64,000 nt of DNA from Euphorbia lathyris (taxonomy: Eukaryota; Streptophyta; Magnoliopsida; Malpighiales; Euphorbiaceae), in contig NC_088916.1 of assembly GCF_963576675.1 (NCBI RefSeq), positions 53,941,001 to 54,005,000 on the forward strand, given 5' to 3'. The position numbers and the translations under genes were made by a program. Of this stretch, positions 10,155 to 62,772 are shown in pieces. The notes beneath the pieces are model-generated. The model saw nothing but the letters and a program-made list of their open reading frames with translations. It was not told the origin of the DNA and did not search any database. How positions within the stretch are numbered: the first letter of the stretch is position 1; every line of letters starts with the position of its first letter.

Positions 10155-10941
10155 GAGAAAATTTATTATATGCCCGGTATACTACTAGGATAGATGATGT
10201 GGTATGCCTAGCCCAATCAAATTAAAACAACAGTCAAAAGGCCTTTTATTCATGTAAAAGAAAGTGCAGTTAATTAGAAAAATAACTATTCTTGTCCCGC
10301 CTCTTTACGTCCATAGGAAACTTAATCATTAATCTATTAACACCAACCGCCTCTCTCAATTAGTACTCCAATAATTAATTGCTATTCTTCCTTTATTGGT
10401 ATTTGTCTGCCATAAGAGAAAATTTATTATGTGCCCGGCATACCACTAGGATAGATGATGTGGTATGCCTGGCCCAATCAAATTAAAACAGCTGTCAAAA
10501 GGCATTTTATTATTCATGTAAAAGAAAGTGCAATTAATTAGAAAAATAACTATTCTTGTCCCGCCTTTTTACGTCCATAGGAAACCTAATCATTAATCTA
10601 TTAACACCATCCGCCTCTCTCAATTAGTACTCCAATAATTAATTGCTATTCTTCCTTTATTGGCATTTGTTTGCCATAAGAGAAAATTTATTATGTGCCC
10701 GACATACCACTAGGATAGATGATGTGGTATGCCTGGCCCAATCAAATTAAAACAGCGGTCAAAAGGTCTTTTATTATTCATGTAAAAGAAAGTGCAGTTA
10801 ATTAGAAAAATAACTCTTCTTGTCCCGTCTCTTTACGTGCATAGGAAATCTAATCATTAATCTATTAACACCAGCCGCTTCTTTCAATTAGTACTCCAAT
10901 AATTAATTGCTATTCTTCCTTTATTGGCATTTGTCTGCCAT
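10155..10941 (+). repeat. Triplicated MULE left end, three units of about 262 bp
   Basis: Units start at 10155, 10416 and 10680, each with GAGAAAATTTATTAT(A/G)TGCCCGG, and end near the word TTTGTCTGCCATAA. The units differ by only scattered bases. Each contains a complete terminal inverted repeat, so the element has three potential left ends against one right end. Confidence 0.85.
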
Positions 10942-11373
10942 AATTATACAGGAATCAAGTGTAAGTTCCTTCAACATTGAACTTTTCAATATTATTATAT
11001 CAATTTTTCTTTTTCTTTTGCTATTCTTTATTTTGTTATTTTTGTTCATGTTCGATTTTTGGTGTTTTTTTTTAATTTTTTTATAAAATTTAAACCCAAT
11101 TTACTAAATAGCTTTAGAAATTGATTAAATATATCATGATTATTGATTATTTATATATTAATTGTATATTGCAGACTAATCATATACATTAGACATGGTT
11201 ATTCAATATTCTATATTATATATTCTGTTGAAATAATAATTGTTATGATGGTTTGTAAATTATTATTTTTTTATGAAACTCCATAATATATATTGATTTT
11301 GATCCGACTCCTTAATACGATTTTTTATACATTCTAAAATTATATGTTTTTCTATTCATTCATTATAGGAGAC

Positions 11374-13065: not shown

Positions 13066-13161
13066 GTTAAACCTAGGGATGTAAACGGGGCGGGGCGGAG
13101 ATTGGAGTTCCCATCCCCGTTCCCCGACTAAATGGGGAATCCCCATATCCGCCCCGCGAAA

Positions 13162-14974
13162 TGATGCGGCGTTTACGTAGAGCTGTCAAATGACGAAATG
13201 TATATTATGATAAGTGCGTTACAACTACGGATGTGATCTTCCTAAATGCTCTATCTCTACTAGACGCCACTACTTAGGGGCAAGTGTACCCCGTCGTATC
13301 AAGTAATAATCCGGTTAAGACCGGGTATCGAATCCACAAGATTTATAACTACAAGTATTAAACGACTCGGTTTTATATGTTATCTAAGCGGTGAATACTT
13401 TGAGTTGAATCGGGGAGCAACTACAAACTACTCCTAACTACGGGTGAGACAATTTTATATAACAAAAACTCTTACGAAATGATGCGGATGGTGATAAGTT
13501 ATAAATATGACAAACAATGACTCCCAATATATATACGGTTAATGATTTACTCTTGCAATGACGACTACGTGTAGTGTGACCGACCCGTGAAGTACTTAGA
13601 CTACGTGGTTCCTAGTCAAGGTGTGTCTAATGCTCGGGATCAGAAATTAGGGCCCGTAAGTTCCGTGGTTTATCAATTCCTACGGTTTCCGGAGCGTCAC
13701 TTCCGGTAAGGCAACACTTATATGAATCCCTAAAGATAGCCCGAATGGCGTCGGAAATCGCGTTCTCCTACACAATAATCAATTAAGAGTATCAAAACAA
13801 GCAATAAACATCAACACATATATAGAAAAAGAGATTATGAATCATAAATTATAAATATGGAGAATGTAAATATGAAATACAACCAAGCCTAGTACATAGG
13901 AAGAGTACAAGCTAATTAGCAAGTGAAAAGGGAAGAATCCACCCTCGAAACTAGCTAACCGGACTCAAGGCCGTCTCTTAGGACTTGGAGGTGGAGCTTT
14001 CGAGCTTGGTGAATGGAGATGAAATGGAACTTTGACGGAATGTCGGAATCAACGAACAAGCCCTCAAGGTGAAAGAGTTTTGCTATGTAAAATAAAATCT
14101 CAAACTATATAACAAGAACTTAAACTATAGTAACAATTGTATATCAAAAGCTTTTTTTTCAAATGAGTGCTAGTCACTCCTATTTATACACATCAAGCTA
14201 GGTAGAATTGTAATTTCACAAGATACAAGCATGGAGGAACATGATTTTCTGCAGATTTCCCATGACACGCCTCGCGTATGGTGGTGTACGCCCCGCGTAT
14301 TTGCCCATTCCGTTAGAAATCTCCTGCATGTGGACCAAATCCAGATCTTGTTGTCTCAACCACGCCCCGCGTGGACTGGGATGCGCCTCGCGTGGTTGAG
14401 TTTCTAAGATTTTATTGCTTGAATTGGGTCTTTTACGCCACGCGTAGCTGAAGCACGCCTCGCGTAAATAAGTCCCTGAGTCTTTTAGGTTGAAGAACTT
14501 CCTTACACGCCCCGCGTGTAAGGTGGGACGCCCCGCGTAGGAGCAGTTGACTCTGGGAGACCATGTAGTCTGACTTTCAGGATTAGGCTTATCATTTCTG
14601 ACATATGTCACACGCCTCGCATGGTGGTTGATACGCCCCACGTATAGGTGAGTAGATCCCACGTGGTGCCTGTGGATTGAACAATTATTTCTGACCAAGT
14701 GTTCCATGCCCCGCGTGAAGGGTGATACACCCCGCGTATGTCGATGGATTTTCGCTCCTTGCTCGTACCTAAAATACAATTCTCGAGAGCCGAGTTAGCT
14801 TGACGTTTTATTTTCTAAATTAATCAAAAATAAGGAAAATTAACCGAAAGTACGGAATTTATTTTTATTTCGTTATTTTATTAAAACATTCTATTTTTGC
14901 AATTAAACTTATTTATTTCATCTAAAATTAAACCGTAAATCACGCTAAAAGATAGGGACGAAACGCCCATATCA
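13162..14974 (-). repeat. LTR (3' copy) of the Athila-like element
   Basis: 1813 bp, begins TGATGCGGCG and ends CCCATATCA. It carries six pairs of the ACGCCCCGCGT motif at 14267-14737. The long open frame on the minus strand over the motif zone (14216-14779) is explained by the stop-free motif and is not called as a gene. Confidence 0.9.
14267..14737. repeat. Array of six paired ACGCCCCGCGT near-palindromes (left LTR)
   Basis: Eleven-base sites start at 14267/14288, 14362/14383, 14435/14455, 14507/14528, 14612/14633 and 14706/14727. Five pairs are spaced 21 bp start to start and one 20 bp. Pair-to-pair steps are 95, 73, 72, 105 and 94 bp. Most variation is CG changed to TG or CA. All sites have the CCCC orientation on the plus strand. 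Confidence 0.9.
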
Positions 14975-16436
14975 AACCTCCTCGAACTTTAAAGTTTTAC
15001 TTGTCCTCAAGTAAAAGAAATCGAAAGACAAGTGATTGAGATTATTAAGAAACAAACCGTCGGTTGGTTTTACCAAGTGCGTGATTCCGAAACTAAAGTT
15101 TTATGCAAAGTTTTCGGCAAGTACCTACGCAAACAAATGAGTGACCAAAACTTGTTTGAAACCTCCATGATCAAATTTAATAGGCAATATTAACGGGGGT
15201 CGATTATCTTTTGAGAACCCGATAGTACCTCACCAAGGGATTTCACTCTTACGCTCAAATTTTGGTGGGTCGGTGTTTTTGCACTCTCCTTTGCACTTAC
15301 TCGAAGTCACTTTGAGTTTGCATTTTCATCCGGTTTTTCCTCCTATATTATGGTCTAGGCAATATTAAAAATGAACCCGGAGGGGGTTGTAATGTGGGTG
15401 GCTTTTTAGTGGTTAATTTTTGGAAACTCGAGTTTAAACACCATTTTGATGATCGCACCGTGCTTTTATTTTGGCCTTAGTAAGTTCGTAAAGTATAACT
15501 CGAAATTGCTCGGGTGGAGCTTGAGAATGCCTTTTGTTCTTTATTGTGTTTTTCTTTTTCTTTTTGTTTTGAGAGCGGCACAAAAACGATTTCGAAAGCT
15601 TATGGTGCTTACTTATCAAGGCCTTGGCTTATTTCAGGTGCGATTTGATTTTGTTGGTATTTAACCAAGAGGAAAAAGGGTTAAATGTTAAAAGGGGATT
15701 AACAAAAAAAGTCGGTTAATAGGCTCGAGGGGGTTTCCTAGAGTTTAATGAAAACGAGAAAAATAAGTTAAGAAAAGAATTAGACTAAGTGGGTTCGTTT
15801 TATCATCTATTGCCATTTTAACCAAAATAAGTGTACTTAACCCGGTATTAGGTGCAAACTCTATGAATCGAGTGAAGTCAAAGCTCTCGAAAAATTGTGA
15901 AAGAAATAGAGTTCTCGCACGAACTCTTTTAGGCTCAAAAATATCTCACAAAAGTTCGGGTTAAATTGTGTACGTTCAAGTTCTCGTCAAATTTTCAACT
16001 ATCCCGTTTTTATTGCCTTTTTAAATTTCATTATAGAGATAACCTTTGGGTTAGGACTCAATGCTTTTGTTTAGTACAATCCTAGGCTTTGCATAAATTC
16101 TATAACTTCAGAATTAAGACTAAAATTTCTTACTAAAACCGATCCTTTGTGTCAACGTCTTTTCATTTAGGAACAAATAACAGAACTTTTAATTAATTTT
16201 CGAGGGAGGTAGTATGTCGGAAAAATTTTAAGAATCAATAAATTAGTTTAATTATTTTGTTGTTTATTTGATTTTTATTTTTGTTTTTGTTAGTGCAAGA
16301 CAAACGGTGAGTGCGGGGTTGCACGATCCTCCGCGTTATTAAAATGACGTCTATTCCAAGGACGTCGCAAAAGAAAAGAAAAACAAAAACAAAAATAAAG
16401 ATGGAATTTAAAAAGGACCCTTGAAGGTCAGGTCCT
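14975..16436. other. Internal region of the Athila-like element without recognised coding sequence
   Basis: This is the 3' part of the element in its own direction. It starts next to the 3' LTR with the polypurine-like tract (14975-14984 read on the minus strand) and a CTTGAGGACAAG-type word common before the end of plant Ty3-type elements. Short open frames here show no family features. Confidence 0.6.
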
Positions 16437-16613
16437 ACGCGTGGCGTGCCCAGGCGGCGCCCCGCGTAGGAGGTGCGTTTTAAGCCGATTTTGGCCAGAG
16501 ACTCAGATACGCGGGGCGCACTAAGAAGGGCGCCCCACGTGTTCCGAGCTCTGGGCCAGTTATACGGGTAAAACGGTGGGCACACGGGGCGTAAAATGGG
16601 GCACGCCCTGCGT
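16437..16613. repeat. Three inverted pairs of ACGCGGGGCGT sites, zone 1
   Basis: Sites start at 16437/16457, 16509/16530 and 16582/16603. Within each pair the first site has GGGG and the second CCCC orientation. The in-pair step is 20-21 bp and pairs repeat every 72-73 bp. The zone lies downstream of ORF1 in element direction. Confidence 0.85.
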
Positions 16614-16844
16614 GAAGTTTATTAATTGATGCGTAAACAGAGAAAAATGAACACGAAAAGAGAAAATAAACAAAACGAAACATAAAGGAAAATCATAAAT
16701 ATATTAAAATAAAATAAGAAAGTACAATAGAAACACAAAAAGATAACAAAAATAACAAAAGAAACACATAAAACAAAACGAACTAAGAAAACATGAAAAG
16801 AGAAGACACAAAACAAAGAAAAACATAAAACAAAGAAAAATAAA

Positions 16845-18013
16845 CTAGGATGGAGGTGGAGGAGGATTGCCGTGGATGTTAAAATGTGTGAAGAAGGTGT
16901 TGGCGAAAGCATCGAAGCTGGCCCTATCCGCTTGCCTTTGAGCCTCGGAGGCGTCGAAGCGCGAGTCGAAGTGGGCCCGATCACGTCATTGGTTGTCCTC
17001 CAAAATATCCAACCGGGCGTAGATGGAGTTGAAGTCGTGGTTGGGGGTGGACTAAAGTTGAGGCCCATGTCCTCGTCCTCGTCCTCATCGTCTTGGGGTT
17101 GGGCTGCCCCCGAACTCTCACTCGGGCCGGAGGTAGGGCGCTTGAGTGATTGGAAGGCATTTTTGTCCAAGGGTCACAGCTCCAAGCTGGGAAGGCGGTC
17201 AAGGGCAGCTTCGCCAAGAGCGGAGGTGGCGAAGATGGTGATGAGATGGCCCAACCCGATTTTGCCACATTTCCGGGTGGGCATGTGGTGGAGTTGGACG
17301 GCCACGAGGTAGGAAAGGTCGTAGGTGAGGCCGTTTGCACAGCAATAGAGGGCCAAAAGCTCGTGCTTATTGACCTTGGTGGACTCGGACTTCCCCGAGA
17401 AGTAGAAGGAGATGAAGCGGTGGAGAAGTTGGAGGAGTGGATCGCGGATGCGGGCCGGGCGGAGGTTGGAGATATCGTAATCGTCGGACCCGGTGATGGA
17501 GGTCCAAAAATCACGAGGGGAGACACCCTCGGGCCAATGCGCTATGCCCTCCTCCATTTGATGTGTGAAATGGTGGCGGAGCCATTGTGTGTCAATAGAG
17601 AAAGGTTGGTTGTGAAGGCGAAAGTTGAAGAGGGCGGCTCCGGGAACCCCGTTGGACTCGAGGGTGGTGTAGAACTCCACGACCAATGAAGAATAAACAT
17701 GGTGGCGTGCCCGATAGTGATCGAGCCAATTTAGAGCGTGGAGGCGGTCCTCAAAAGCACCTCCCAAGCCGAAACGATCAAAGGTGCTGCGGTTGATGTA
17801 TGGAAGTTCCATTATGTGGGCAGCGAAGAGTGTTTGGTAGGATTGGGCTTCTTCTTCGGTGAGAAGATGGAAAGGAGCCCGGTATTGGTGGGTGAGTGGC
17901 AGTGTTTCCTCTCGTTCAGGAGGTGGTGGTGATTGGCGTAGTTGGGTACGAGAGGTACGGGCCCGAGTGGACCGCGGGGGGCGCATGTCGGCAACATGTT
18001 TGCGTCTTGCCAT
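16845..18013 (-). pseudogene. Athila ORF1-like (gag-position) protein, broken
   Basis: From an ATG at 18011-18013 (MARRKHVADMRPPR) the frame runs leftward through a helical domain resembling the Arabidopsis retrotransposon ORF1 family (AHIMELPYINRSTFDRFGLG, LVVEFYTTLESNG, HKHELLALYCC-like region). An in-frame TGA at 17174-17176 follows LPSLEL. The same frame then goes on (DKNAFQSLKRPTSG, an acidic DEDEDED run). A frame change at a CCCCC run near 17055 leads to a coiled-coil-like tail with one more stop, ending at 16845. If unbroken it would be about 390 aa. ORF1 sits in the gag position of Athila elements and its biochemical role is poorly known. The damage makes this copy non-functional. Confidence 0.7.
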
Positions 18014-18152
18014 GGTGTTAGTGAGGGATTGAGAGAGAGTGTTAGGAAGAGTGTGGGAAGTTAGGGTGAGTTGTGAGGAAGAAGAAAAAAAAGGGGAGTA
18101 TTTATAGGGGAGGAGTTGGGAATCCAAGTAAAACTCGGATTCCCAGAGGGGT

Positions 18153-18330
18153 ACGCGAGGCGTGAAGAGGCCACACCACGCGTATCCCACCTCCTGCCCA
18201 TTATTTGATGCAAAAACGGCACGGTACGCGGGGCGTGCAGGGAAGCACGCCTCGCGTATCACACCTCCTGGCCGTAAATTGGTGGGAGAAAGGTGAGGAC
18301 GCGGGGCGTAAATGGGGGTACGCCCTGCGT
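18153..18330. repeat. Three inverted pairs of ACGCGGGGCGT sites, zone 2
   Basis: Sites start at 18153/18173, 18226/18247 and 18299/18320, with pair-to-pair steps of exactly 73 and 73 bp. Spacer words CCCACCTCCTG / ACACCTCCTGGCC recur between pairs, so the unit is a 73-bp tandem repeat. It lies just upstream of the ORF1 start in element direction, where a promoter or leader would be. A single unpaired site sits at 18645-18655. Confidence 0.85.
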
Positions 18331-18659
18331 GGAGGACGGAAGTGGAAGCATTATTTTTCGGTTTTTAAGGGGTTTTTTCAATTTTTATGGGTTTAATTTG
18401 GTGGTTTATGGTTTTATTAATGAGTATTTAATGGTTTTATTGTAATTGAGGTGGTGGTTAAGGTGAAATTAATGTGGAGGGAAGGTGAATAATTTTTGAA
18501 TTTGAAAGGGTATGATGTGATTGGAGGTGAGAGGAGGTGGAGTGTGGAAGTGGGAAAGATATATGGGGAAGAGGGAAGAGTGATGGGAGAGGTGGAAGAT
18601 GAAAAGGTTGCCATGGGGAGTTGCAATTCGCAACTCCCTAAGGATACGCGAGGCGTGCT

Positions 18660-19920
18660 GTTAGGCATGAAATTGACTACGGTTAACTGGATAAGTTTAA
18701 GGGATTTGGGCGTTATTTATGCTCTATGGCAAAGAATAAGGACTGATTTGTGTCTTTATGCAGATTAGTAAAGATAAATGCTAAACTCGCTGGAAACAGT
18801 TTGTTTTGCTACGGCCAAAGAGGAGTGGAGCCTATATTATGTCCAGCGGTCAAACGCCGGATTATCCAATGACGGACAGCGACAGATCAGAGGTGGCAGA
18901 GGCAGAGACAGAGCAGCAAGTGGAGAAGTACAGAGGCGGCATTACCGAAAGAAGCATGATGACATGAAATATCAACCCCTTGAGTGTTCAAGGGTCAAAC
19001 GATCTTTAATCATTTTAGTTATTTTGTCTTAGCTTTTAGTTGATTTTATTTTGTGGTAAGGTACGAAGGTTGTACCATTTTTGCCCCTGTCTTTCTCCTT
19101 TAAGTAGACGTAGCAAAGGAGAGATAGGGAGTTTGGAACTTTTATTAATTTTAAGAAGTAGAATAGTTGTCTGTAAAAAAGAGCTCGAATGGAGTCTCTC
19201 AACGTTTCAAGAACTTCAGATTACTCTTTGCTCAATATGAGTGAGTAATCTATTTTGAATGGGCACGGCCAGGCCGAGCCGGTAATGTAAGTTTTACATC
19301 GTTTTAATGAATATTAGTATTTTGTCAATGATGTGATTGATGAGGATTTAACTTTCATGCTTCGGCATTTATGCATGTGTTAGATGGATGATAGGACACT
19401 GCTTACATCTACACTGATATCTCTATTAATCTCCCAACCTCGAAGCTGACCAGTTAGATGGTTGTGTCATGGGTTTTCTTAATTAGAAATGCAGTTTTGT
19501 TCTTAATGCAAGAAAGAACGTATCTTTAGGACGCTAAAGGTTCTAGTAACTCTTAGGAGCTTGAGAACACACGACAGTTGACTCAAGCTCACGTCAAAAC
19601 TGATACTTTGGCTTCATTGGCATTATCTTGTATTCATTGGAATGTTGTAAGGCTTTGCACACCTGTTCGGCAGTGTCGAGCCTGTTCTATTTTCTAAATC
19701 ATTACCAAGTTGTCTTATTTCTTACAATCAGCCCTCTTACATCTTACGAAACCAACATCACACAATCAACTTAAAAAGGAGAAAGCTTGTTCGACACACA
19801 CACACGCTGTTTAGCAACAATTTCTGATGTACATTTGAATTTCAATCCCTGTGGAGATGATACTTAACTTATCACTTTATTACTTGTATCTAGTGCACTT
19901 GCTAGAGTCTAATCATAGGA
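18660..19920 (+). repeat. Possible LTR-derived insertion inside the Athila-like element
   Basis: The paired-site pattern breaks off at 18655. The following 1.25 kb differ in character and end with ATCCCTGTGGAGATGATAC and TTATTACTTGTATCTAGTGC, words typical of the 3' end of plant Ty3-type LTRs (compare 22650-22700). Neither exact ends nor a target duplication could be fixed. Alternatively it is part of the element's own spacer. Confidence 0.35.
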
Positions 19921-19996
19921 CAACACGTGCCCTAGGGCACATCCCGCATGTCCTTCCACGTGGCTTTTATTCCGGAGCAACTAACTGCTGAATGTT

Positions 19997-20105
19997 ACGC
20001 GGGGCGTGGTAGGGTAAACGCCCCGCGTAACATGCCTTCTACTGCGAGAAAAAAAAAGGTTAGATACGCAGATGCGCGGGGCGTATAGGTGTGTACGCCC
20101 CGCGT
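19997..20105. repeat. Two inverted pairs of ACGCGGGGCGT sites, zone 3
   Basis: Sites start at 19997/20018 and 20074/20095. The in-pair step is 21 bp in both and the pair-to-pair step is 77 bp. Each pair can form a hairpin with a 10-base loop. Confidence 0.85.
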
Positions 20106-20295
20106 GGCTTATTTTCTTTTGGATTAAAAGTGGGATTTGTTTTTCTTTTGATTTTTATTTTAAAGAAATGACATGAGTCGGCGGGAAAACAAATTACGGA
20201 AAATAAAAGTTGGGAAAGAAAACTCCCTTATTCGAGCTTGGGTTGCCTCCCAAGAAGCTACTTTAGAGTCGGTGAGCTCGACCTAGAATTTCCTC

Positions 20296-20910
20296 CTAGG
20301 TGTATGCTTCCATTCGCGTTAGAAATGCAAATTCTTGAATAAACAATCCGTACCTGCAAAACGGGTTGTTAGATTCAAAGAAATTTAATGAAAACCAAAA
20401 GCTATATTTAAAGAAGTTTTTGAAGAGTTTAGTTTGCTCCCTTTTTGACTCCTTTGGTAGTTCAAAAAGAGCGAAATATTCCGAGGTAGAAGGAACCTCC
20501 AACTCTTCTAGCTTTGGATTTATTTCCATGGGCCCGCACATAACCAGCTCATCGATTAGGATTTCCGGTTCCTCGCAGTTGAGACAGCCTACATAATTTG
20601 GGGACTCTTCTTGAGAGAGCTCAATTAACTGGAGCTCTACATTTTGATCACCTGGATTAGCGTCTTTATTTGATTCGTCCGCGGTTGAATCGATGCGAGA
20701 CGTCAATCTAGCGATTTGATTTCCCAAATCCCTGCAATATGCCTCATTGTTAGATAATCTCACTTGAATATCTTTAAGCATAGAGATTACCACATCGAAT
20801 TGCGAGGTTGAGTGTTGGTGTGGGCATTCGTCATCCATGCGGTCGTCCCGCAGATGACGACTATGAGGCATCATACCATGAAACAAATCATTAGTAACAA
20901 CAAGAAACAA
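20296..20910 (-). CDS. Unidentified 204-aa frame, first ORF of the Athila-like element
   Basis: This is the first open frame after the primer-binding site and 5' LTR in element direction. It is hydrophilic, with a possible coiled coil (about residues 38-72: VVISMLKDIQVRLSNNEAY), an acidic middle rich in Glu and a Cys pair (GCLNCEE). No family was recognised and no signal peptide or membrane segment is visible. It could be an accessory protein, a leader peptide or chance. Its codon structure has not been tested. Confidence 0.35.
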   Translation of the reverse strand: MFLVVTNDLFHGMMPHSRHLRDDRMDDECPHQHSTSQFDVVISMLKDIQVRLSNNEAYCRDLGNQIARLTSRIDSTADESNKDANPGDQNVELQLIELSQEESPNYVGCLNCEEPEILIDELVMCGPMEINPKLEELEVPSTSEYFALFELPKESKREQTKLFKNFFKYSFWFSLNFFESNNPFCRYGLFIQEFAFLTRMEAYT

Positions 20911-21000
20911 AATAAATTATTCACAAAAAGAAAGTAATATCTACAAATGCTTAGACTAACAACAAAACGTTTTTGTCTAATATTGCAATAAATTATAAAT

Positions 21001-21017
21001 TCCCGGCAACGACGCCA
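21001..21017 (-). promoter_or_regulatory. Primer-binding site complementary to tRNA-Asp
   Basis: The minus strand reads TGGCGTCGTTGCCGGGA, starting six bases inside the 5' LTR end. It is complementary to the 3' end of plant tRNA-Asp (CCCCGGCAACGGCGCCA) with about two mismatches. This fits Athila/Tat-type elements and sets the polarity as minus. Confidence 0.75.
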
Positions 21018-21151
21018 AAAACTTGATGCGGCGTTTACGTAGAGCTGTCAAATGACGAAATGTATATTATGATAAGTGCGTTACGACTACGGATGTGATC
21101 TTCCTAAATGCTCTATCTCTACTAGACGCCACTACTTAGGGGCAAGTGTAC

Positions 21152-22748
21152 TGATAGGGGTCAAAAACCCTATCTTTGGGTATGGTTTTAGGACGGTTTT
21201 TAGTGTTATTTCATGAATAAGCGAGCAATTCTCGCATTTATATGCCTTTGAGTGAGTGAGTTAGGAATTGGAAATGTTTTATTAACTTTTTGTTGTTTAG
21301 GCTCGTTTTCTGATCATTTTAGGCAAATTAGGCCAAAATGACATGTATGTTATAATTCCGTTATCTTTTATAGCTAATTGATCCACCAAAAGTTGCACCA
21401 AACGGAGCATTTGCTCGAAATGAGCGATTGGCGGGTCAATTTAGCATCGAGACTAATGTTATTTGGAGTTTTCGTGCATGCGCAGGGACAAATTCGGGCG
21501 AAAATTACATCGTGGAACATCGAGCAACCATGCGGAAGCGTGCATGGCAAAACGGCTCGTCGAACTGACCTTTTTAAGCCAGCTCGTTATAGGCCAGCTC
21601 GCCGAGCAGGCCTCCAGGGGCCTGCTCGGGCGAGCTGGGGGCCAGCTCGCCGAGCAGCGCGCCCTACTCGGCGAGCTGACCTGCGGGAATTGGTTAAAAT
21701 AAGCAGTTTTGACTCCACGACCGGTCCCACGACTTCCCACCTGCATAAGGATACGAAATAGGTCAAAAAGAGGGCCCGAGCTACAACTATAAATAGAACT
21801 TTTCCATTGTAAATTATATATCTTTTATCCTTGTAATTTCTTAGCTTCCACCTTGAGAAATCCTCTCCACCTCCTCCATATCCTTCAAACCTCCATTGAA
21901 GACACCTCCGAAGCTCCGCTCACCGAGGATTGCTCAAGCTCCATCCTTAAGTCCTAGGAAGACGCCTGCATTGGTAGACAGGTTCCCTGAAAGGGATTTT
22001 TCTTCTTTTATATTCTGTCTAGCCTCTGATCCATGTTATGAATCCTAGGCTCATTGTATCTTCGTGACAATACTTTCATCTTTGATATATATTATAGTTT
22101 TGTTCATTCAATTGTTTTATTGCTTTAATCTTTGTCTTACGCTTTGTCTGATTGGTTTAACTCATTTGATAATCCCAAAATTAAGTTGGCACATATTGTG
22201 AGCTGAATCTGACCTAGTCAGTGCCTATAGGATTGACGACCCTATAGAAGATTAAGCCCAAATTGCTGAGCCTTAGAGCTAGTTTCGGCCTTACAAGGGA
22301 ATCACGAACTAGGGACCTCAGGAGGATAGGTAGGGTTAATCGCCTCGGACACAAGTGACTTAGATTAGGTTTTAATTCTGTTTGTCTAAACAATCTATTT
22401 TCATCATCATCGTATCCCTTCATGTTCCTTCGGATAATTACATTGGTAAAAGATCACCTAGGAGTAGTTTAACTTAATTAGGGGTAGAGTAACTTAATTA
22501 GGCGTAGAATAACTTAGTTAGGATTAGATAACTTAGCTAGGAGTCGTATAGTTCAACCTAGGAGTAGATTAACTTAAGAAAAACCAAACTCAAAACCCCC
22601 AAAGCCTAGATAACACCTGAGACCAAGTAGCTTGATACTTGCAGAAATAAATCCTGTGGACAATACCTGGACTTTCCAGAATTTTATTACTTGATAACGA
22701 CGGGGTACACTTATCCCTTAGTGAGTCTCCTTTACGGGAGGCACATCA
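21152..22748 (+). mobile_element. Solo LTR of a second Ty3-type family
   Basis: 1597 bp, starts TGATAGGGGTCAAAAACC and ends GGAGGCACATCA, flanked by the perfect 5-bp duplication TGTAC (21147-21151, 22749-22753). A diverged copy in the opposite orientation is at 61136-62772. It holds a cluster of GCTCGCCGAGC near-palindromes at 21554-21677, and the word TTATTACTTGATAACGACGGGGTACACTT near its end is shared with the Athila-like LTR. A solo LTR arises by recombination between the two LTRs of a full element. Confidence 0.9.
21554..21677. repeat. Cluster of GCTCGCCGAGC near-palindromes in the solo LTR
   Basis: Sites centre near 21560, 21587 (half-site), 21602, 21629, 21650 and 21670. The last three are about 20.5 bp apart. 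The CpG in the middle (CGCCG or CGGCG) is kept in most. The other copy of this LTR (61136-62772) has no such cluster at the matching place. Confidence 0.75.
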
Positions 22749-23731
22749 TGTACCCCGTCGTATCAAGTAATAATCCGGTTAAGACCGGGTATCGAATCCA
22801 CGGGATTTATAACTACAAGTATTAAACGACTCGGTTTTATATGTTACCTAAGCGGTGAATACTTTGAGTTGATTCGGGGAACAACTACAAACTACTCCTA
22901 ACTATGGGTGAGACAATTTTATATAACAAAAACTCTTACGAAATGATACGGATGGCGATAAGTTATAAATATGACAAACAATGACTCCCAATATATATAC
23001 GGTTAATGATTTACTCTTGCAATGACGACTACGTGTAGTGTGACCGACCCGTGAAGTACTTAGACTACGTGGTTCCTAGTCAAGGCGTGTCTAATGCTCG
23101 GGATCAGAAATTAGGGCCCGTAAGTTCTGTGGTTTGTCAATTCCTACGGTTTCCGGAGCGTCACTTCCGGTAAGGCAACACCTATATGAATCCCTAAAGA
23201 TAGCCCGAATGGCGTCGGAAATCGCGTTCTCCTACACAATAATCAATTACGAGTATCAAAACAAGCAATAAACATCAACACATATATAGAAAAAGAGATT
23301 ATGAATCATAAATTATAAATATGGAGAATGTAAATATGAAATACAACCAAGCCTATTACATACGAAGAGTACAAGCTAATTAGCAAGTGAAAAGGGAAGA
23401 ATCCACCCTCGAAACTAGCTAACCGGACTCAAGGCCGTCTCTTAGGACTTGGAGGTGGAGCTTTCGAGCTTGGTGAACGGAGATGAAATGGAACTTTGAC
23501 AGAATGTCGGAATCAACGAACAAGCCCTCAAGGTGAAAGAGTTTTGCTATGTAAAATAAAATCTCAAACTATATAACAAGAACTTAAACTATAGTAACAA
23601 TTGTATATCAAAAGCTTTTTTTTTCAAATGAGTGCTAGTCACTCCTATTTATACACATCAAGCTAGGTAGAATTGTAATTTCACAAGATACAAGCATGGA
23701 GGAACATGATTTTCTGCAGATTTCCCATGAC

Positions 23732-24202
23732 ACGCCTCGCGTATGGTGGTGTATGCCCCGCGTATTTGCCCATTCCGTCAGAAATCTCCTGCATGTGGAC
23801 CAAATCCAGATCTTATTGTCTCAACCACGCCCCGCGTAGACTGGGATGCGCCTCGCGTGGTTGAGTTTCTGAGATTTTATTGCTTGAATTAGGTCTTTTA
23901 CGCCACGCGTAGCTGAAGTACGCCTCGCGTAAATAAGTCCTTGAGTCTTTTAGGTTGAAGAACTTCCTTACACGCCCCGCGTGTAAGGTGGGACGCCCCG
24001 TGTAGGAGCAGTTGACTCTGGGAGACCATGCAGTCTGACTTTCAGGATTAGGCTTATCATTTCTGACATATGTCACACGCTTCGCGTGGTGGTTGATACG
24101 CCCCGCGTATCGGTGAGTAGATCCCACGTGGTGCCTGTGGATTGAACAATTATTTCTGACCAAGTGTTCCACGCCCCGCGTGAAGGGTGATACGCCCCGC
24201 GT
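23732..24202. repeat. Array of six paired ACGCCCCGCGT near-palindromes (right LTR)
   Basis: Same six pairs and spacing as at 14267-14737. The two arrays differ mainly by C/T and G/A changes inside the motifs. Confidence 0.9.
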
Positions 24203-24854
24203 ATGTTGGTGGATTTTCGCTCCTTGCTCGTACCTGAAATACAATTCTCGAGAGCTGAGTTAGCTTGACGTTTTATTTTCTAAATTAATCAAAAATAAGG
24301 AAAATTAACCGAAAGTACGAAATTTATTTTTATTTCGTTATTTTATTAAAACATTCTATTTTTGCAATTAAACTTATTTATTTCATCTAAAATTAAACCG
24401 TAAATCATGCTAAAAGATAGGGACGAAACGCCCCTATCACGAAACAAACGGGGACAAAATTCATCCCGACCCTACGGGTATCCCCGTTTACCCATTTAAA
24501 GTTTTAAAAGATATATGAAAAAAGAAATAAATGAAAATAATAGAGAAAATAAGAGAATATGATGAACAAATAGATATAGAGTGAAATAGAGGTAAAACAT
24601 TTGGATTTGATTAATCATAGGTTCAAGTTTTTCTATGCGTATTTTTTTATTTTCTATGATTAATAATATGTTATCGGGGATTAAATAGGTAATCCGCCGG
24701 GAATCCCCATGGGGCACAATACGGGGCGGGGATACCCTTTCCCATCCCCGCTAATGGGGCACATATTAGTCCCCGTCCCCGCCCCATAATAAAACGGGGC
24801 GGGACCATGTCGGGGACGGGTAAATTCCGCCCTATTTACATCCCTAGTTAAACC

Positions 24855-53546: not shown

Positions 53547-55460
53547 TCATCTCTCAAAATTTGTTTCTCCAATTGATGAATGCCACAGAGGTGCTGCTAC
53601 ATCAGCAGATTTAACGTCCAGTGAGTCTGATTTCTCTGAAGCTGCTTGAATTTTCAACAGCAGAGACACTACTTCTTCCATGGCCAGTCTCCTTGCTGGT
53701 TCTCTTGTCAAGCAGGCCATACTTACTCTAGCAAGTCGTAGAGCCAGGGTTTTTTCATGGCTTCGACAGAGAGCAGGATCAATGAAGAAAAGCAGGTCTG
53801 TTTCTGCATTTTCTTTCTGCGCAATTGAAATGATCGCTGCAGAAAGTAGTACTTCACTTCCATCCTGTATAAAGACAGCATCCTTCCCTGTGATCAACTC
53901 CAGAAGCACCACTCCGAAAGCATAGACATCCATTTTCGGAGACACTTTCCCTGTCTGCAAATATTCCGGCGCCATGTAACCTCTAGTCCCCTCAACATGC
54001 ATTGTCGTGGCAATGTTTGTTGTTCCCCTTGCTGTTGCTCTTGCAAGAGCGAAATTTGCAACCTTCGCTCTTAGATTTCTGTCTAATAAAATGTTGCTGC
54101 TGTCTATGTCCTTGTGCACACATGGAGGGTCAGTGAAGCTGTGAAGATAGTAAAGTCCATTGGCAACATCAAGAGCAATCTGAATCTTCTTTTTCCAACT
54201 TCCGGTTTCTTCACGCCTCGATAGCCATTCTCGTAGACTACCATTTTTCATGTACTCGAAAATGAGATAGAAACAACCAAGATTCTCACACACACCGTGA
54301 AGCTTGATCAAATTGAAGTGGTTGAACCTCTTCAAAATGTTCACTTCTTTCGACACATCTCTACTCGTCTTCTTTACAGCTAGAATATCTCCATTAAACT
54401 CACCCCAGTAAACAGAACCCTTGATTCTGTGTTTAGAACTGAAATCTTCAGTGGCTTTCTTTACCTCCTTAATTCCGAAAACTTTCAGGGTATACTCAAC
54501 GCTTGCAATCTCAACACGAAGATCTCCAGGAAATCCTTGTTTAACTTCAGCACCGCTTTCAGGCACCCTCTTTCTACTCTCTCTGTGAAACAGAAACAGA
54601 ATAGCTAGAACGATCGCCAGTAGAAACAAACAAGCTACTGCAATCCCAACCCTTTCATATAGTTTTCGCTTCGATCTCTTACTTTCAGGACTATAAGGCA
54701 AGGAAGGCAGCATGCTTGGCGGCTCATTGTGAACTACAGTATTCAAACTGGTAGGCTTAGTAGCAAGAGGTATCAGAATCGTTGTTTCCGTGTAAATCAC
54801 AGAGTTTTCTCCCAAACCATTTGCATCTAGTATAATCTCTAAGCTTACATTGAATCTATCAGCTATATCAGATATCGAATCACCGGAATTAACAGGATAA
54901 GTAAGTAGAAAATTCGTTCCATTCCTAATCTGGTTAAGTGTAGGACAAGCACAACGAAGTGGTACCTGCAGTTCCTGATCAAGACTCAAATTGAATTCGC
55001 TGTGTGTATTCGCTCTCTTGATATCAGCACAAGTCGAAAGTCCCTTGTACATTCGAGTAGCTATGACATAATACGTTCTGTAATCATTGCTGACACGATA
55101 TGTAGAATTGGCCTGATAATACTGGCCTAAACAAGAACAATTTACAGGAACTATCACCTCTTTGTTTAGAGGAAACTCGGACTGCGGCGTAACTTGGTTG
55201 AGCTTTGCAAGCTCTTCTTTGTTTGTAGAAGTGATGGATGAAATAGTAGGAACCGAGTTATAAAAAGGTTGAGATTTGAAGATTAGAAAAGCTTCACAGC
55301 TTGTGGTGTGGCCATTACAAGTGTAAAGAAGTGCAGAAGAAGGTCCAGTGTCTTCACTGGTGTTGCAGTCAAAAGCAGAACTTGCTGAGTAGTTTTGCTG
55401 AGCAGAAGCTAGTGAAGTGAAGAAAAGAATTAAGAGTAAGCTAAGAAACAAGTGGTCCAT
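53547..55460 (-). CDS. LYK4: LysM receptor-like pseudokinase (LYK4/LYK5-like)
   Basis: Single exon, 637 aa. Signal peptide 1-20 (ILFFTSLASA), three-LysM ectodomain with the family's CxC spacers (CSC 108-110, CAC 170-172), many N-glycosylation sites, one membrane span (about 271-291) and a kinase-like domain (about 335-605). The glycine loop is lost (IKGSVYWGEF), the lysine is present (LAVKK), HRD reads HKD and DFG reads NFA. Catalytic inactivity is therefore likely, as known for LYK4 and LYK5, which bind chitin oligomers and work with the active kinase CERK1 at the plasma membrane. Which of the two clades this belongs to cannot be settled by eye. The intronless structure also fits LYK4/5. The frame is intact. 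Confidence 0.9.
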   Translation of the reverse strand: MDHLFLSLLLILFFTSLASAQQNYSASSAFDCNTSEDTGPSSALLYTCNGHTTSCEAFLIFKSQPFYNSVPTISSITSTNKEELAKLNQVTPQSEFPLNKEVIVPVNCSCLGQYYQANSTYRVSNDYRTYYVIATRMYKGLSTCADIKRANTHSEFNLSLDQELQVPLRCACPTLNQIRNGTNFLLTYPVNSGDSISDIADRFNVSLEIILDANGLGENSVIYTETTILIPLATKPTSLNTVVHNEPPSMLPSLPYSPESKRSKRKLYERVGIAVACLFLLAIVLAILFLFHRESRKRVPESGAEVKQGFPGDLRVEIASVEYTLKVFGIKEVKKATEDFSSKHRIKGSVYWGEFNGDILAVKKTSRDVSKEVNILKRFNHFNLIKLHGVCENLGCFYLIFEYMKNGSLREWLSRREETGSWKKKIQIALDVANGLYYLHSFTDPPCVHKDIDSSNILLDRNLRAKVANFALARATARGTTNIATTMHVEGTRGYMAPEYLQTGKVSPKMDVYAFGVVLLELITGKDAVFIQDGSEVLLSAAIISIAQKENAETDLLFFIDPALCRSHEKTLALRLARVSMACLTREPARRLAMEEVVSLLLKIQAASEKSDSLDVKSADVAAPLWHSSIGETNFER

Positions 55461-56389
55461 GGAATTTGGAAAAGAAGTAATTTTTGGGGTGAGAAAGAAG
55501 AAGGGTGGTTACAGGGATAAGCAGTTTAAGGAATATAAAAAGTTGGATTAGTTGAACAGAGTTTGATTTGACTTGTTGGAGCATTAATTCATCAGGAGGA
55601 GTACAAAAGGAAGCTCCAAAACGCGCAATTTGTGGCCTAATATCTGTATTAGTTTAAGAGAAGAAAAAGGAAGATTGACTAGATCAAGTCTTTTGTGTTG
55701 TTATGTTTTCAGACATAGATTCTTTGTCAACAAATGAGAGTATTTGCAGTTACTTAATTCAGATTATGCTGGCCCGTGATATACGTATGCTGCTGTTGCA
55801 CAACAAGACCCAATAATCCCTCTCTGTACAAGCCCAAATTCTATTACTTCATAATTTATTACTCAGCTATATTTTCCGAGCGTGGGTGAAAAGAAGATTT
55901 CTTTTCGTTTTTATTTTTCACACTTTTCCCTTTTTCAAAATTTTTCCGTATTTCTTTTATTTTTCACGTTTTTCGCTCTTCTTTTTCATCTTCATATTTT
56001 TTCTATTTTTACTGTTTTTCACATTTTTCTCATTTTTTTTCATATTTTCTTTTTTTTCCCGCTTATTATAATATATAATTTTTAATATAAAATATATTTA
56101 TAAATCAATATAACATTATATATTTAAGTTCGTGAAAGTATTTTCCTATAACATAAATAAATACCGTAAAGTATTTTCCAGTGTCATCCAAATATCCGAA
56201 AATATTTTATTTTCAATAAAAAGTTCTGTTTCTTAATATTTTTCAAAATAATATTTTCTTATAAATAAATGGGACTTATATTTATAATTCTAAATAAGTA
56301 ATTAATATTTTAAATGCTCATTTCTAAATGAAATAATATTAAAATAACTTTTTTAGTCTCTAGCCTTGGGAAAATAAAATACAGATGCT
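55461..56389. other. Upstream region of the LYK gene, T-rich low complexity
   Basis: The first 150 bases form the leader/promoter side of LYK. From 55860 to 56080 there is a TTTTTC-rich tract giving Phe-rich chance frames. No other gene was seen. Confidence 0.45.
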
Positions 56390-61135: not shown

Positions 61136-62772
61136 TGATGCGCCTCATGGTTGAGACTCATTAAGGGATAAGTGTACCCCGTCGTTATCAAGTAATAATC
61201 TGGACAAGTCCAGGTATCGAATCCACAGGATTTACTCATGCAAGTATCGAGCTACTCGGTGTTTGGTGTTATCTAGGCTTTGGGGGGTTTTGATTTTGGT
61301 TTTGATTAAGTTAACCTACTCCTAATTAAGTTATTCTACTCCTAGTTAAGTTATTCTACTCCTAAATGATCTTTCACTAATGAAATTACCCGAAGGGACA
61401 TGGAGTGATACAATAATAATGAAGATAGGTTGTTAAGTCAATTGATTAAAAACCTAATCCAAGTCATTTGTACTCGAGGCGATTAACCATACTTATCCTT
61501 CTGAAGTCCCTAGTTCGTGATTCCCTTGTAAGGCCGAAACTAGCTCTAAGGCTCAGCAATTTGGGCTTAATCAACTAAGAGGTCGTCAATCTCCTAGGCT
61601 CTGACTATGTCAGATTCAGCTCGTAATATGTGTCAACTTAATTTTTGGACTTATGAATTAGTTAACCCAATCGAATAAAGCGTAAGACAATGATTAAATA
61701 AATAAACCAATTGAACAAAACAAGAGCTATAATATCATTAAAGATGAAGAAACATTGTCACAGGGATACAATTAGCCTAGGATTCATAGACTATATCAAG
61801 GGTTAAACAAATTATAAAAAGGATGAGAAAATCCATTTCAGGGAACCTGTCTACCCTGCAGGCGTCTTCCTAGGACTTAAGGATGGACCTAGAACAATTC
61901 TCGGTGAGCGGAGCTTCGAAGGTTCTTCAATGGAGGTTGAAAGAGATGGAGGAGGTGGAGAGGATTCTTCAAAGGAGAAAGCTAGGGTTTTTTACAATAA
62001 TGAAAGATGGAAAAACTAAAACTAAAAATTGATAGGTGAAAAACGAATTACAAAAACTCTCTCTAAAATAATTACAACTCCTAATTCCTAACAAATGGAA
62101 CTATTTATAATGAAAAATTAAAACCTATTCCTAATGAAAACTAATTAATAAAACCTATTTCTAATAAAAGACTGATTAATAAAAAGCTTTCCTAATGAAA
62201 GACTAATTAATAAAAAGATATTCTAATGGAAAAATAACTCTCCAAATATTATCTAATCAAAACTAATTTATCTTTGAGGATAAAAAAATCTAATTATTTA
62301 AATACAAAAAGCCCAAAGATAATCCCTAAAAATCTGCTAAAATATTCTGCATGATTTTTATTTGAATTTGATACGCCGAGTGAGTCCTGATTCTGATCCT
62401 TAAAAATCTCCACCTTTATCTCTAAAAATTTGCACATAATCTCATAAAATCTTATTTAGATAACTCACCCAAAAGTAATTAATTATCCTACCAAAAATCA
62501 TTTTTAATTAGCAAGTCAAATTTGATTTATTTTTGGTAGGTTAATTTCTTAATTTTGGGTACAGATAAAGCTCAAAATAACATATAGAGATTAATTTATT
62601 AAAAGTAACAAAATATTTGACAAAAGTTGGGAATATTTAATAAAAAGCTAAAAAGTAATTTTAAAACCTAAAATTGTCAAAACAATAATATATTGTTATT
62701 AAAGTAAATAAAAAGAAAATACAAAATAGTCCCTAAAACCGTACTAAAAGATAGGGGTTTTTTACCCTATCA
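61136..62772 (-). mobile_element. Solo LTR, same family as 21152-22748, opposite strand
   Basis: 1637 bp, starts TGATGCGCCTCATGG and ends TTTACCCTATCA, flanked by perfect CGTAT duplications (61131-61135, 62773-62777). Its reverse complement follows the 21152 LTR throughout (AAGGGATAAGTGTACCCCGTCG, the four-fold TAAGTTA.TCTACTCCTA unit, GGCGTCTTCCTAGGACTTAAGGATGGA). It lacks the GCTCGCCGAGC cluster. Confidence 0.9.

What the first reader, a model, noticed from the sequence alone, without database searches (positions are those of the whole stretch)
14267..20105. Helically phased pairs of a CpG near-palindrome throughout an Athila-like retrotransposon
The 11-base word ACGCCCCGCGT (or its reverse complement) occurs in 14 complete pairs if one LTR is counted (6 in the LTR, 8 internal), and 20 if both are. 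In every pair the two sites start 20 or 21 bp apart. Neighbouring pairs are often 72, 73 or 77 bp apart (73 and 73 at 18153-18330; 72 and 73 at 16437-16613; 73 and 72 at 14362-14507). This is close to 2 and 7 turns of B-DNA, so all sites would face the same side. In LTRs the pair members are in the same orientation, in the internal zones they are inverted. A 73-bp period is not a multiple of three, so a protein repeat does not explain it. Zones lie just upstream and downstream of ORF1 and in both LTRs. Known parallels are the TnpA sites of Spm and the VANC-bound motif clusters of VANDAL transposons. A dimeric or tetrameric factor (silencing, anti-silencing or packaging) is inferred. I know of no described system with this motif.
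Basis: partly seen in the sequence, partly recalled or inferred. Interest (0 to 1): 0.88.

Follow-up and report, generated by a model that had tools for sequence, protein, structure and literature searches.

The report
Phased site ladder in retrotransposon promoters
In a plant genome, at least three families of LTR retrotransposons carry ladders of one 11-base DNA site, set about whole turns of the DNA helix apart and mostly upstream of TATA-like sequences; the ladders are likely docking arrays for one DNA-binding protein that would switch the elements on.

Summary
All 14 pairs (20 with both LTRs) are at the stated places; I found a fifteenth, split by a later solo-LTR insertion. The element lies on the minus strand (13162-24439, TSD CGAAA), is Athila-like, and has no detectable pol.

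The spacing rule holds across the 1.02-Gb genome: 13,091 exact pairs with starts 20-22 bp apart, 11,952 at exactly 21 bp, 0 for the reversed pattern. In 15 of 15 family LTR copies the sites are better kept than the spacers and gaps around them, but in 6 of 15, the closest copies, less well than the LTR's other half.

In the LTR the ladder ends 79-81 bp before TATAAATA in 16 of 16 LTRs. An internal ladder ends 46-47 bp before a second TATA box in 8 of 8 aligned copies, with the ORF1 start codon in line in 7. Two other families and one unclassified locus carry ladders of the same site.

Best reading: an upstream activating array for one dimeric factor, probably host-encoded, serving both the LTR and an internal ORF1 promoter. 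Closest known kind: Sirevirus CGG-CCG repeated-motif boxes; site, clade and phasing differ. No factor is identified.

The parts
13162..14974 (-). 3' LTR (element on the minus strand; U3 begins at 14974)
   Evidence: 97.6% identical to the other LTR over 1691 bp; TG...CA ends and 5-bp TSD CGAAA at 13157-13161 and 24440-24444
14267..14738 (-). U3 ladder: six pairs of ACGCGNGGCGT, members same orientation, all in helical phase
14181..14188 (-). U3 TATA box TATAAATA, 79 bp past the last site
   Evidence: 89-91 bp from the start of the last site in 16 of 16 aligned LTRs
14975..14985 (-). polypurine-tract-like TCGAGGAGGTT next to the 3' LTR
   Evidence: sequence; role recalled
16437..16613 (-). array III: three inverted pairs, steps 72 and 73, downstream of ORF1
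17174..18013 (-). ORF1 (PF03078 ATHILA ORF-1), 279 codons then a TGA stop; beyond it the frame departs from that of open copies, so broken in this copy
   Evidence: departure seen by comparing; open full-length copies exist elsewhere
18099..18106 (-). internal TATA box TATAAATA, 47 bp after array II and 93 bp before the ORF1 start codon; the only TATAWAW on this strand in the internal region
18153..18330 (-). array II: three inverted pairs, steps 73 and 73, at the internal promoter
18646..20105 (-). array I: three inverted pairs, one of them split by a solo LTR; steps 77 and 79, out of phase
18659..19925 (+). later solo LTR that interrupts a pair; TSD CGTGC; joining the flanks gives 21-bp spacing
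20299..20877 (-). 193-aa open frame in gag position, no Pfam match
21001..21017 (-). primer-binding-site-like TGGCGTCGTTGCCGGGA next to the 5' LTR
   Evidence: sequence; tRNA-Asp type recalled
22749..24439 (-). 5' LTR main part (rest at 21024-21151, split by an insert 21152-22748); ladder 23732-24202, TATA 23653

Best explanation
The ladders are likely upstream activating arrays: each 11-base near-palindrome would bind one dimeric DNA-binding protein, neighbouring dimers would line up on one face of the DNA, and the bound array is predicted to drive transcription from the LTR TATA box and from a second, internal TATA box placed just before ORF1. Shown here: the sites, their 20/21-bp and 52/73-bp steps, the phasing of the U3 ladder and of arrays II and III (array I does not fit), the fixed distance to TATA in the LTR and at ORF1, the conserved internal TATA box, third-position-biased change in ORF1, and the same site in similar ladders in other retrotransposon families. 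Inferred: that a protein binds, that it is a dimer, that it activates, and that it is encoded by the host rather than by ORF1. The factor is put down to the host because families in which no ORF1 was recognised carry such ladders too.
For: Genome-wide spacing: 13,091 exact pairs at N9-11, of which 11,952 at N10; reversed-pattern control 0; all 30 spacings N11-40 together 1,473, control 2. Conservation over 15 family LTR copies against the window LTR: sites 89.3% of 1895 positions, spacers inside pairs 64.3%, gaps between pairs 79.5%, upstream U3 88.1%, rest of LTR 85.5%; sites above gaps and spacers in 15 of 15 copies; CpGs inside sites kept in 405 of 459 cases, other CpGs in 570 of 816. TATAAATA 89-91 bp from the start of the last site in 16 of 16 LTRs. 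Internal promoter: 8 of 8 aligned copies have a TATA box 46-47 bp after array II, 7 of these with the ATG in line. Phasing; 51 of 56 steps from six arrays in four groups of elements (arrays I and III left out) lie within 1.5 bp of whole turns of 10.45 bp, 16 expected; the 21 steps above 22 bp alone have mean resultant 0.85. Other families: B (iMet-type PBS in three of four loci; gag, zinc knuckle and protease in L023), D (RVT_3 RNase H and integrase just before the array, L028) and one unclassified locus (L027), each with TATA-like sequences downstream. ORF1: third codon positions differ most in 21 of 21 pairs of 7 copies.
Against: Arrays I and III have no TATAWAW box directly after them in this copy, so not every ladder sits at a visible promoter. 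Array I is out of phase. In 6 of 15 LTR copies, the closest ones, sites are slightly less conserved than the TATA-R-U5 half, and in the window copy they decayed faster than the flanks. Array positions are deleted in copies more often than the rest of the LTR (321 of 7080 against 344 of 19,499), so the array does change. At a fixed 10.45-bp period L027 and L028 fit poorly (mean resultant 0.32 and 0.56; their best periods are 10.22 and 10.30). In family B the TATA-like sequence is 200-230 bp away. No binding, expression or methylation data were available.
Confidence: 0.6

Rival explanations
1. The factor is encoded by the element itself, most likely ORF1, which would bind U3 and its own internal promoter (a feedback circuit like that of foamy viruses); other families would be passengers on it.
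For: ORF1 lies behind its own promoter with the same kind of array and changes mostly at third codon positions; its N-terminus is rich in arginine and open copies end in a long predicted helix (the last at low confidence).
Against: No ORF1 was recognised in families B and D, in the frames scanned (four frames of L019, L021, L023 and four of L028) or by DNA in B. Pfam gives ORF1 only ATHILA ORF-1 and a sub-threshold Transposase_32 above noise. Both fold predictions are of too low confidence to use.
Confidence: 0.2
2. The ladders mainly serve chromatin state: target sites of an anti-silencing (VANC-like) or silencing factor, with promoter activity a by-product.
For: Dense arrays in non-coding parts, as for VANC motifs (PMC5735166, passages). 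Only 2 of the 34 CpGs of the U3 array lie outside sites. Arrays I and III lack a TATA box.
Against: Fixed TATA distances in U3 and at ORF1 point to transcription. No VANC-like protein was looked for beyond the Pfam scans.
Confidence: 0.12
3. RNA function: the inverted pairs form hairpins used for packaging, dimerisation or siRNA production.
For: Inverted internal pairs can form stems of 9-11 of 11 pairs with 9-10-nt loops.
Against: Real partners pair no better than swapped partners (91 against a mean of 90.8 pairs). LTR pairs are direct and cannot form this stem, yet obey the same spacing.
Confidence: 0.04
4. A passive tandem repeat or a coding repeat without regulatory role.
For: Array II holds an old tandem duplication. 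A 192-codon open frame crosses the window's U3 array (0.27% of 3000 flank shuffles reach 190). In family B an open frame runs into the LTR array.
Against: The open frame is absent from the 15 aligned LTR copies (longest runs 75-141 codons) and shows no third-position excess (23.5, 18.3, 22.7%). Gap lengths agree without clear sequence similarity. Sites outlast spacers in 15 of 15 copies.
Confidence: 0.04

Closest known systems
Sirevirus repeated-motif (RM) boxes (Bousios et al. 2010, PMC2829016; passages and section 9 read)
   Same: High-copy CpG-bearing palindromes clustered in the upper half of the LTR just upstream of the TATA box and again upstream of the 3' ORF (ENV); authors suggest regulation and an internal ENV promoter; factor unknown.
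   Different: Sireviruses are Ty1/copia, the authors call the RM Sirevirus-specific, and all but one of the 13 RMs have a CGG-CCG core; here the site is ACGCSNSGCGT in Ty3/gypsy-type elements. A term search of the main text (helical, spacing, distance, interval, apart) finds no statement on spacing between boxes, and the authors could not conclusively identify the internal promoter.
Maize Grande gene23 (as reviewed in PMC7264820, passages)
   Same: Accessory ORF in the 3' part of a plant gypsy element with its own promoter, encoding a nuclear protein.
   Different: Antisense to gag-pol; no shared array with the LTR mentioned in the passages read.
Foamy virus internal promoter and LTR, both bound by Bel1/Tas (PMC517496, passages)
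   Same: Two promoters, LTR and internal, share a response element.
   Different: There the activator is encoded by the virus and its binding is shown; here the factor is unknown and likely a host protein. No relationship by descent is claimed.
VANDAL/VANC motif arrays (PMC5735166, passages)
   Same: Short motif at high density in non-coding parts of a mobile element, evolving by tandem repetition.
   Different: DNA transposon, motif YAGTATTAY, same orientation within arrays; binding protein known and encoded by the element; no phased pairs in the passages read.
Repeated U3 activator boxes of Tnt1 and Tto1 (recalled, not read)
   Same: Repeated short boxes in U3 that bind host activators.
   Different: Few copies, different sequence, no internal promoter copy (recalled).

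Membership tests
Athila lineage of Ty3/gypsy | ATHILA ORF-1 protein (PF03078) | tested here: met
   27.5 and 28.6 bits in the window, cut-off 20.2; 27.6 and 30.7 in L016 and L008, 17.7 (below cut-off) in L026
Athila lineage of Ty3/gypsy | LTRs, TSD, PBS of tRNA-Asp type, PPT | tested here: met
   the tRNA assignment and the PPT role are recalled
Athila lineage of Ty3/gypsy | gag-pol with Athila-type RT | tested here: not met
   no pol found among the frames scanned in this copy, so lineage by RT cannot be tested; pol-less Athila elements are common in Arabidopsis (PMC2410132, passages)
Sirevirus RM boxes | at least 8 palindromic repeats, most in the upper half of the LTR upstream of TATA | tested here: met
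   12 sites per LTR, TATA 79 bp on
Sirevirus RM boxes | further boxes upstream of the ENV-position ORF | tested here: met
   arrays I and II before ORF1; array III lies after it
Sirevirus RM boxes | CGG-CCG core | tested here: not met
   site is ACGCSNSGCGT
Sirevirus RM boxes | host element is a Ty1/copia Sirevirus | tested here: not met
   ATHILA ORF-1, PBS type
Foamy-virus-like dual promoter circuit | internal promoter and LTR share the response element | tested here: met
   (sequence level only)
Foamy-virus-like dual promoter circuit | activator encoded by the element and expressed from the internal promoter | not testable with these tools
   ORF1 lies after the internal TATA, but binding is unknown; fold predictions unusable
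VANC target arrays | arrays bound by an element-encoded VANC protein and demethylated | not testable with these tools
   no methylation or binding data

The most novel reading that the evidence does not exclude
One trans-acting protein reads a helically phased 21-bp ladder of ACGCGNGGCGT that several LTR-retrotransposon families of this plant have converged on or captured, and in the Athila-like family ORF1 is that protein: made from its own internal promoter, it drives both itself and the LTR, a foamy-virus-like feedback circuit in a plant that other families exploit.
Probability: 0.15. Interest if true: 0.92.

Novelty: new variant of a known kind. Interest (0 to 1): 0.72.

Why it matters
It gives a defined DNA probe (a 32-bp pair present more than 13,000 times in one genome) with which to find the factor that would control many retrotransposon promoters, and a conserved internal promoter that would answer how the 3' ORF of an Athila-like element is expressed, a question left open for Sirevirus ENV. 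If distinct families really share one factor, it would show mobile elements converging on the same promoter grammar, with helical phasing as a testable rule.

Tried and rejected
Protein and nucleotide collections held no usable relatives: no ORF1 homologue at E 0.001 among 5211 candidates. The viral contigs pattern scan gave one hit (L001), which one search shows to lie in 21-bp direct repeats in a 61%-GC contig, not plant-like; rejected. The viral contigs protein scan gave no relative.

Hairpin/RNA reading: rejected by the partner-swap test. Coding reading of the U3 array: rejected. G-quadruplex reading: not computed; disfavoured because the G runs are about 17 bases or more apart and internal second sites are on the other strand. 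Structure of ORF1: two AlphaFold2 jobs, mean pLDDT 40.1 and 37.5, too poor for a fold search, so none was run.

Naming the factor by motif (CAMTA CGCG box, VOZ GCGT-N7-ACGC, FHY3/FAR1 CACGCGC) was considered from recall only and not adopted: none predicts ACGCSNSGCGT-N10-ACGCSNSGCGT. One listing search for retrotransposon, LTR, CGCG box and CAMTA together found 0 papers.

Literature: the 11-mers were searched in 5.39 million papers: 9 papers, one on a plant (a lettuce FISH probe, PMC11598091, passages); the other eight were seen only in the listing. Searches with Athila among the terms listed, in their capped lists, no title describing this array; only listings, and passages of the papers cited here, were read.

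Left undone: genome-wide count of the 52-bp step (not completed), of N0-8 spacing (not completed), and the test of the FISH-probe sequence in this genome (not completed).
Full report
WHAT IS THERE. The window is plant-type DNA from a 1.02-Gb genome. The element runs on the minus strand from 24439 to 13162, with 5-bp target duplications CGAAA on both sides. Its 3' LTR is 13162-14974. Its 5' LTR is 24439-22749 plus 21151-21024, split by a later insert. The two LTRs are 97.6% identical over 1691 bp. A PBS-like sequence follows the 5' LTR (21017-21001) and a purine-rich stretch precedes the 3' LTR. Inside there is a 193-aa frame without Pfam match in gag position and ORF1 (PF03078 ATHILA ORF-1, 28.6 bits, cut-off 20.2). 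No pol was found among the frames scanned. ORF1 is broken in this copy: a TGA after 279 codons, and beyond it the frame departs from that of open copies. Pol-less Athila elements are common in Arabidopsis (PMC2410132, passages).

THE OBSERVATION. All 14 pairs are confirmed. A 15th is split by a solo LTR; with the flanks joined its two sites stand exactly 21 bp apart, the second with 3 mismatches. Over 30 sites the motif is ACGCGNGGCGT with a free centre, and all 17 departures outside the centre are transitions. The 10-nt spacers are C-rich on the element strand, with no G at spacer positions 2-6 in 12 spacers. In the U3 array only 2 of 34 CpGs lie outside sites, and CpG observed/expected there is 0.13.

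PHASING. The six U3 pairs keep one helical phase over 439 bp (mean resultant 0.97 near 10.45 bp, p 0.001 by gap jitter). U3 together with array II gives p 0.0002. Array I (77 and 79 bp between pair centres) does not fit. Gaps of 41-42 bp recur in array II, array III and two of the five U3 gaps, with little or no sequence similarity. Between arrays II and III, 57 of 66 site letters agree, against 23 of 42 and 22 of 46 aligned columns in the gaps; the first gap still shows weak similarity (about 3 s.d. above shuffles), the second none. Array II also holds an old internal tandem duplication (z 10.7).

GENOME-WIDE TEST. The pair pattern with N9-11 occurs 13,091 times (reversed control 0), 11,952 of them at N10. 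All 30 spacings N11-40 together give 1,473 (control 2), and many of the listed ones are triplets 21+21 or steps of about 48-52. I took 20 loci of 10 kb from the first places of these listings, all on contig C1. The 13 taken all match the Athila-like LTR; of the 7 taken, 3 match this family and 4 do not. Of 480 neighbour steps under 200 bp in the 20 loci, 219 are 21, 32 are 20, 98 are 51-53, 55 are 72-74 and 22 are 83-84.

CONSERVATION. Fifteen LTR copies (partial and several second copies left out) aligned to the window LTR give identity 89.3% in sites, 64.3% in the spacers inside pairs, 79.5% in gaps, 88.1% in the upstream U3 and 85.5% in the TATA-R-U5 half. Sites exceed gaps and spacers in 15 of 15 copies. 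They exceed the TATA-R-U5 half in 9 of 15; in the 6 closest copies they are slightly below it. CpGs are kept in 88.2% of cases inside sites (405 of 459) and 69.9% outside (570 of 816). After insertion of the window copy its own sites decayed faster than the flanks (5.3% against 2.05%, 6 of 7 changes at CpG). I read this as CpG decay in single copies no longer under selection, with the site kept by selection among the copies that multiply; that step is inference. Array positions are also deleted in copies more often than the rest of the LTR (4.5% against 1.8%).

PROMOTERS. TATAAATA stands 89-91 bp from the start of the last site in 16 of 16 LTRs. At ORF1, eight aligned sequences (the window and seven loci; L017 and L020, which have no ORF1 match, were dropped before the alignment) all have TATA(A/T)A 46-47 bp after array II. 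Six of eight share an exact inverted repeat GGGAATCC...GGATTCCC between array and TATA, and seven of eight have the ATG in line. In the window this is the only TATAWAW on the minus strand of the internal region. ORF1 looks selected as a protein: third codon positions differ most in 21 of 21 pairs of 7 copies. In the genome 139 ORF1 matches were scored of 8028 candidates, and of the first 12 (the window copy included) 11 have no stop inside.

OTHER FAMILIES. L019, L021, L022 and L023 show no match (E 1e-10) to the Athila-like LTR, internal parts or ORF1. Three of them carry TGGTATCAGAGC, an iMet-type PBS by recall, and L023 encodes gag, a zinc knuckle and a protease. Their LTRs carry ladders such as 21-52-21-21-21-52-21. 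L028 is a gypsy-type element with RVT_3 RNase H and integrase ending just before a ladder of 19-21 and 51-52 bp; its LTRs were not delimited, and it shares an 85-bp, 80% match in the array with L022, so B and D may not be fully independent. L027 is an unclassified locus with a looser ladder. In single arrays the best period ranges from 10.22 to 10.46 bp; at a fixed 10.45 bp L027 (0.32) and L028 (0.56) fit poorly.

HOW IT LIKELY WORKS. Inference: a dimer binds each near-palindrome; two dimers 21 bp apart, and further pairs 52 or 73 bp on, face the same side and cooperate to recruit the transcription machinery to the TATA box downstream. The element would use the module twice, for its genome RNA (U3) and for ORF1 (internal promoter). 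Since families in which no ORF1 was recognised use it too, a host factor is more likely than ORF1. What arrays I and III do is unexplained.

KNOWN OR NEW. Sirevirus RM boxes (PMC2829016, passages and section 9) have the same layout, LTR upstream of TATA plus a cluster before ENV, in another superfamily and with another core, and their authors suggested but could not conclusively identify an internal promoter. So this is a new variant of a known kind, with two additions: strict near-helical spacing, and a conserved internal TATA promoter. Four literature searches with Athila among the terms and one on the 11-mers listed no title describing it; most subscription journals are outside that library.

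Noticed in passing
literature; PMC11598091 Table 2: A lettuce tandem-repeat FISH probe (Oligo-ls350), with weak signals on lettuce chromosomes 1L and 8L, which also carry 18S rDNA signals, contains ACGCGGGGCGT; rDNA spacers of Asteraceae may hold the same site, or it is chance. The test in this genome did not complete.
   Followed up: partly
window 18118-18144 (-), between array II and the internal TATA: Inverted repeat GGGAATCC...GGATTCCC, exact in 6 of 8 aligned copies; a possible second factor site.
   Followed up: partly
window 14612-14664: A decayed third site 21 bp beyond the fifth U3 pair, also in the other LTR, so the unit may be a ladder of 21-bp steps rather than a strict pair.
   Followed up: partly
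window 14216-14794 (-): 192-codon open frame across the U3 array, rare under shuffling but absent from the 15 other LTR copies aligned.
   Followed up: yes
window 21152-22748: Insert in the 5' LTR, part of it (21842-22729) related to 61153-61984 on the other strand (79% identity).
   Followed up: no
L027:3728-4000 (-): DUF1985 fragment (30.6 bits, below the Pfam cut-off of 35.1) about 1.8 kb from a ladder that could not be assigned to an element.
   Followed up: no
window 53547-55508 (-): One 653-aa open frame with LysM and kinase domains, of the LYK4/5 receptor-kinase type.
   Followed up: no
window 10155-10943: Three tandem copies of a 264-bp unit.
   Followed up: no
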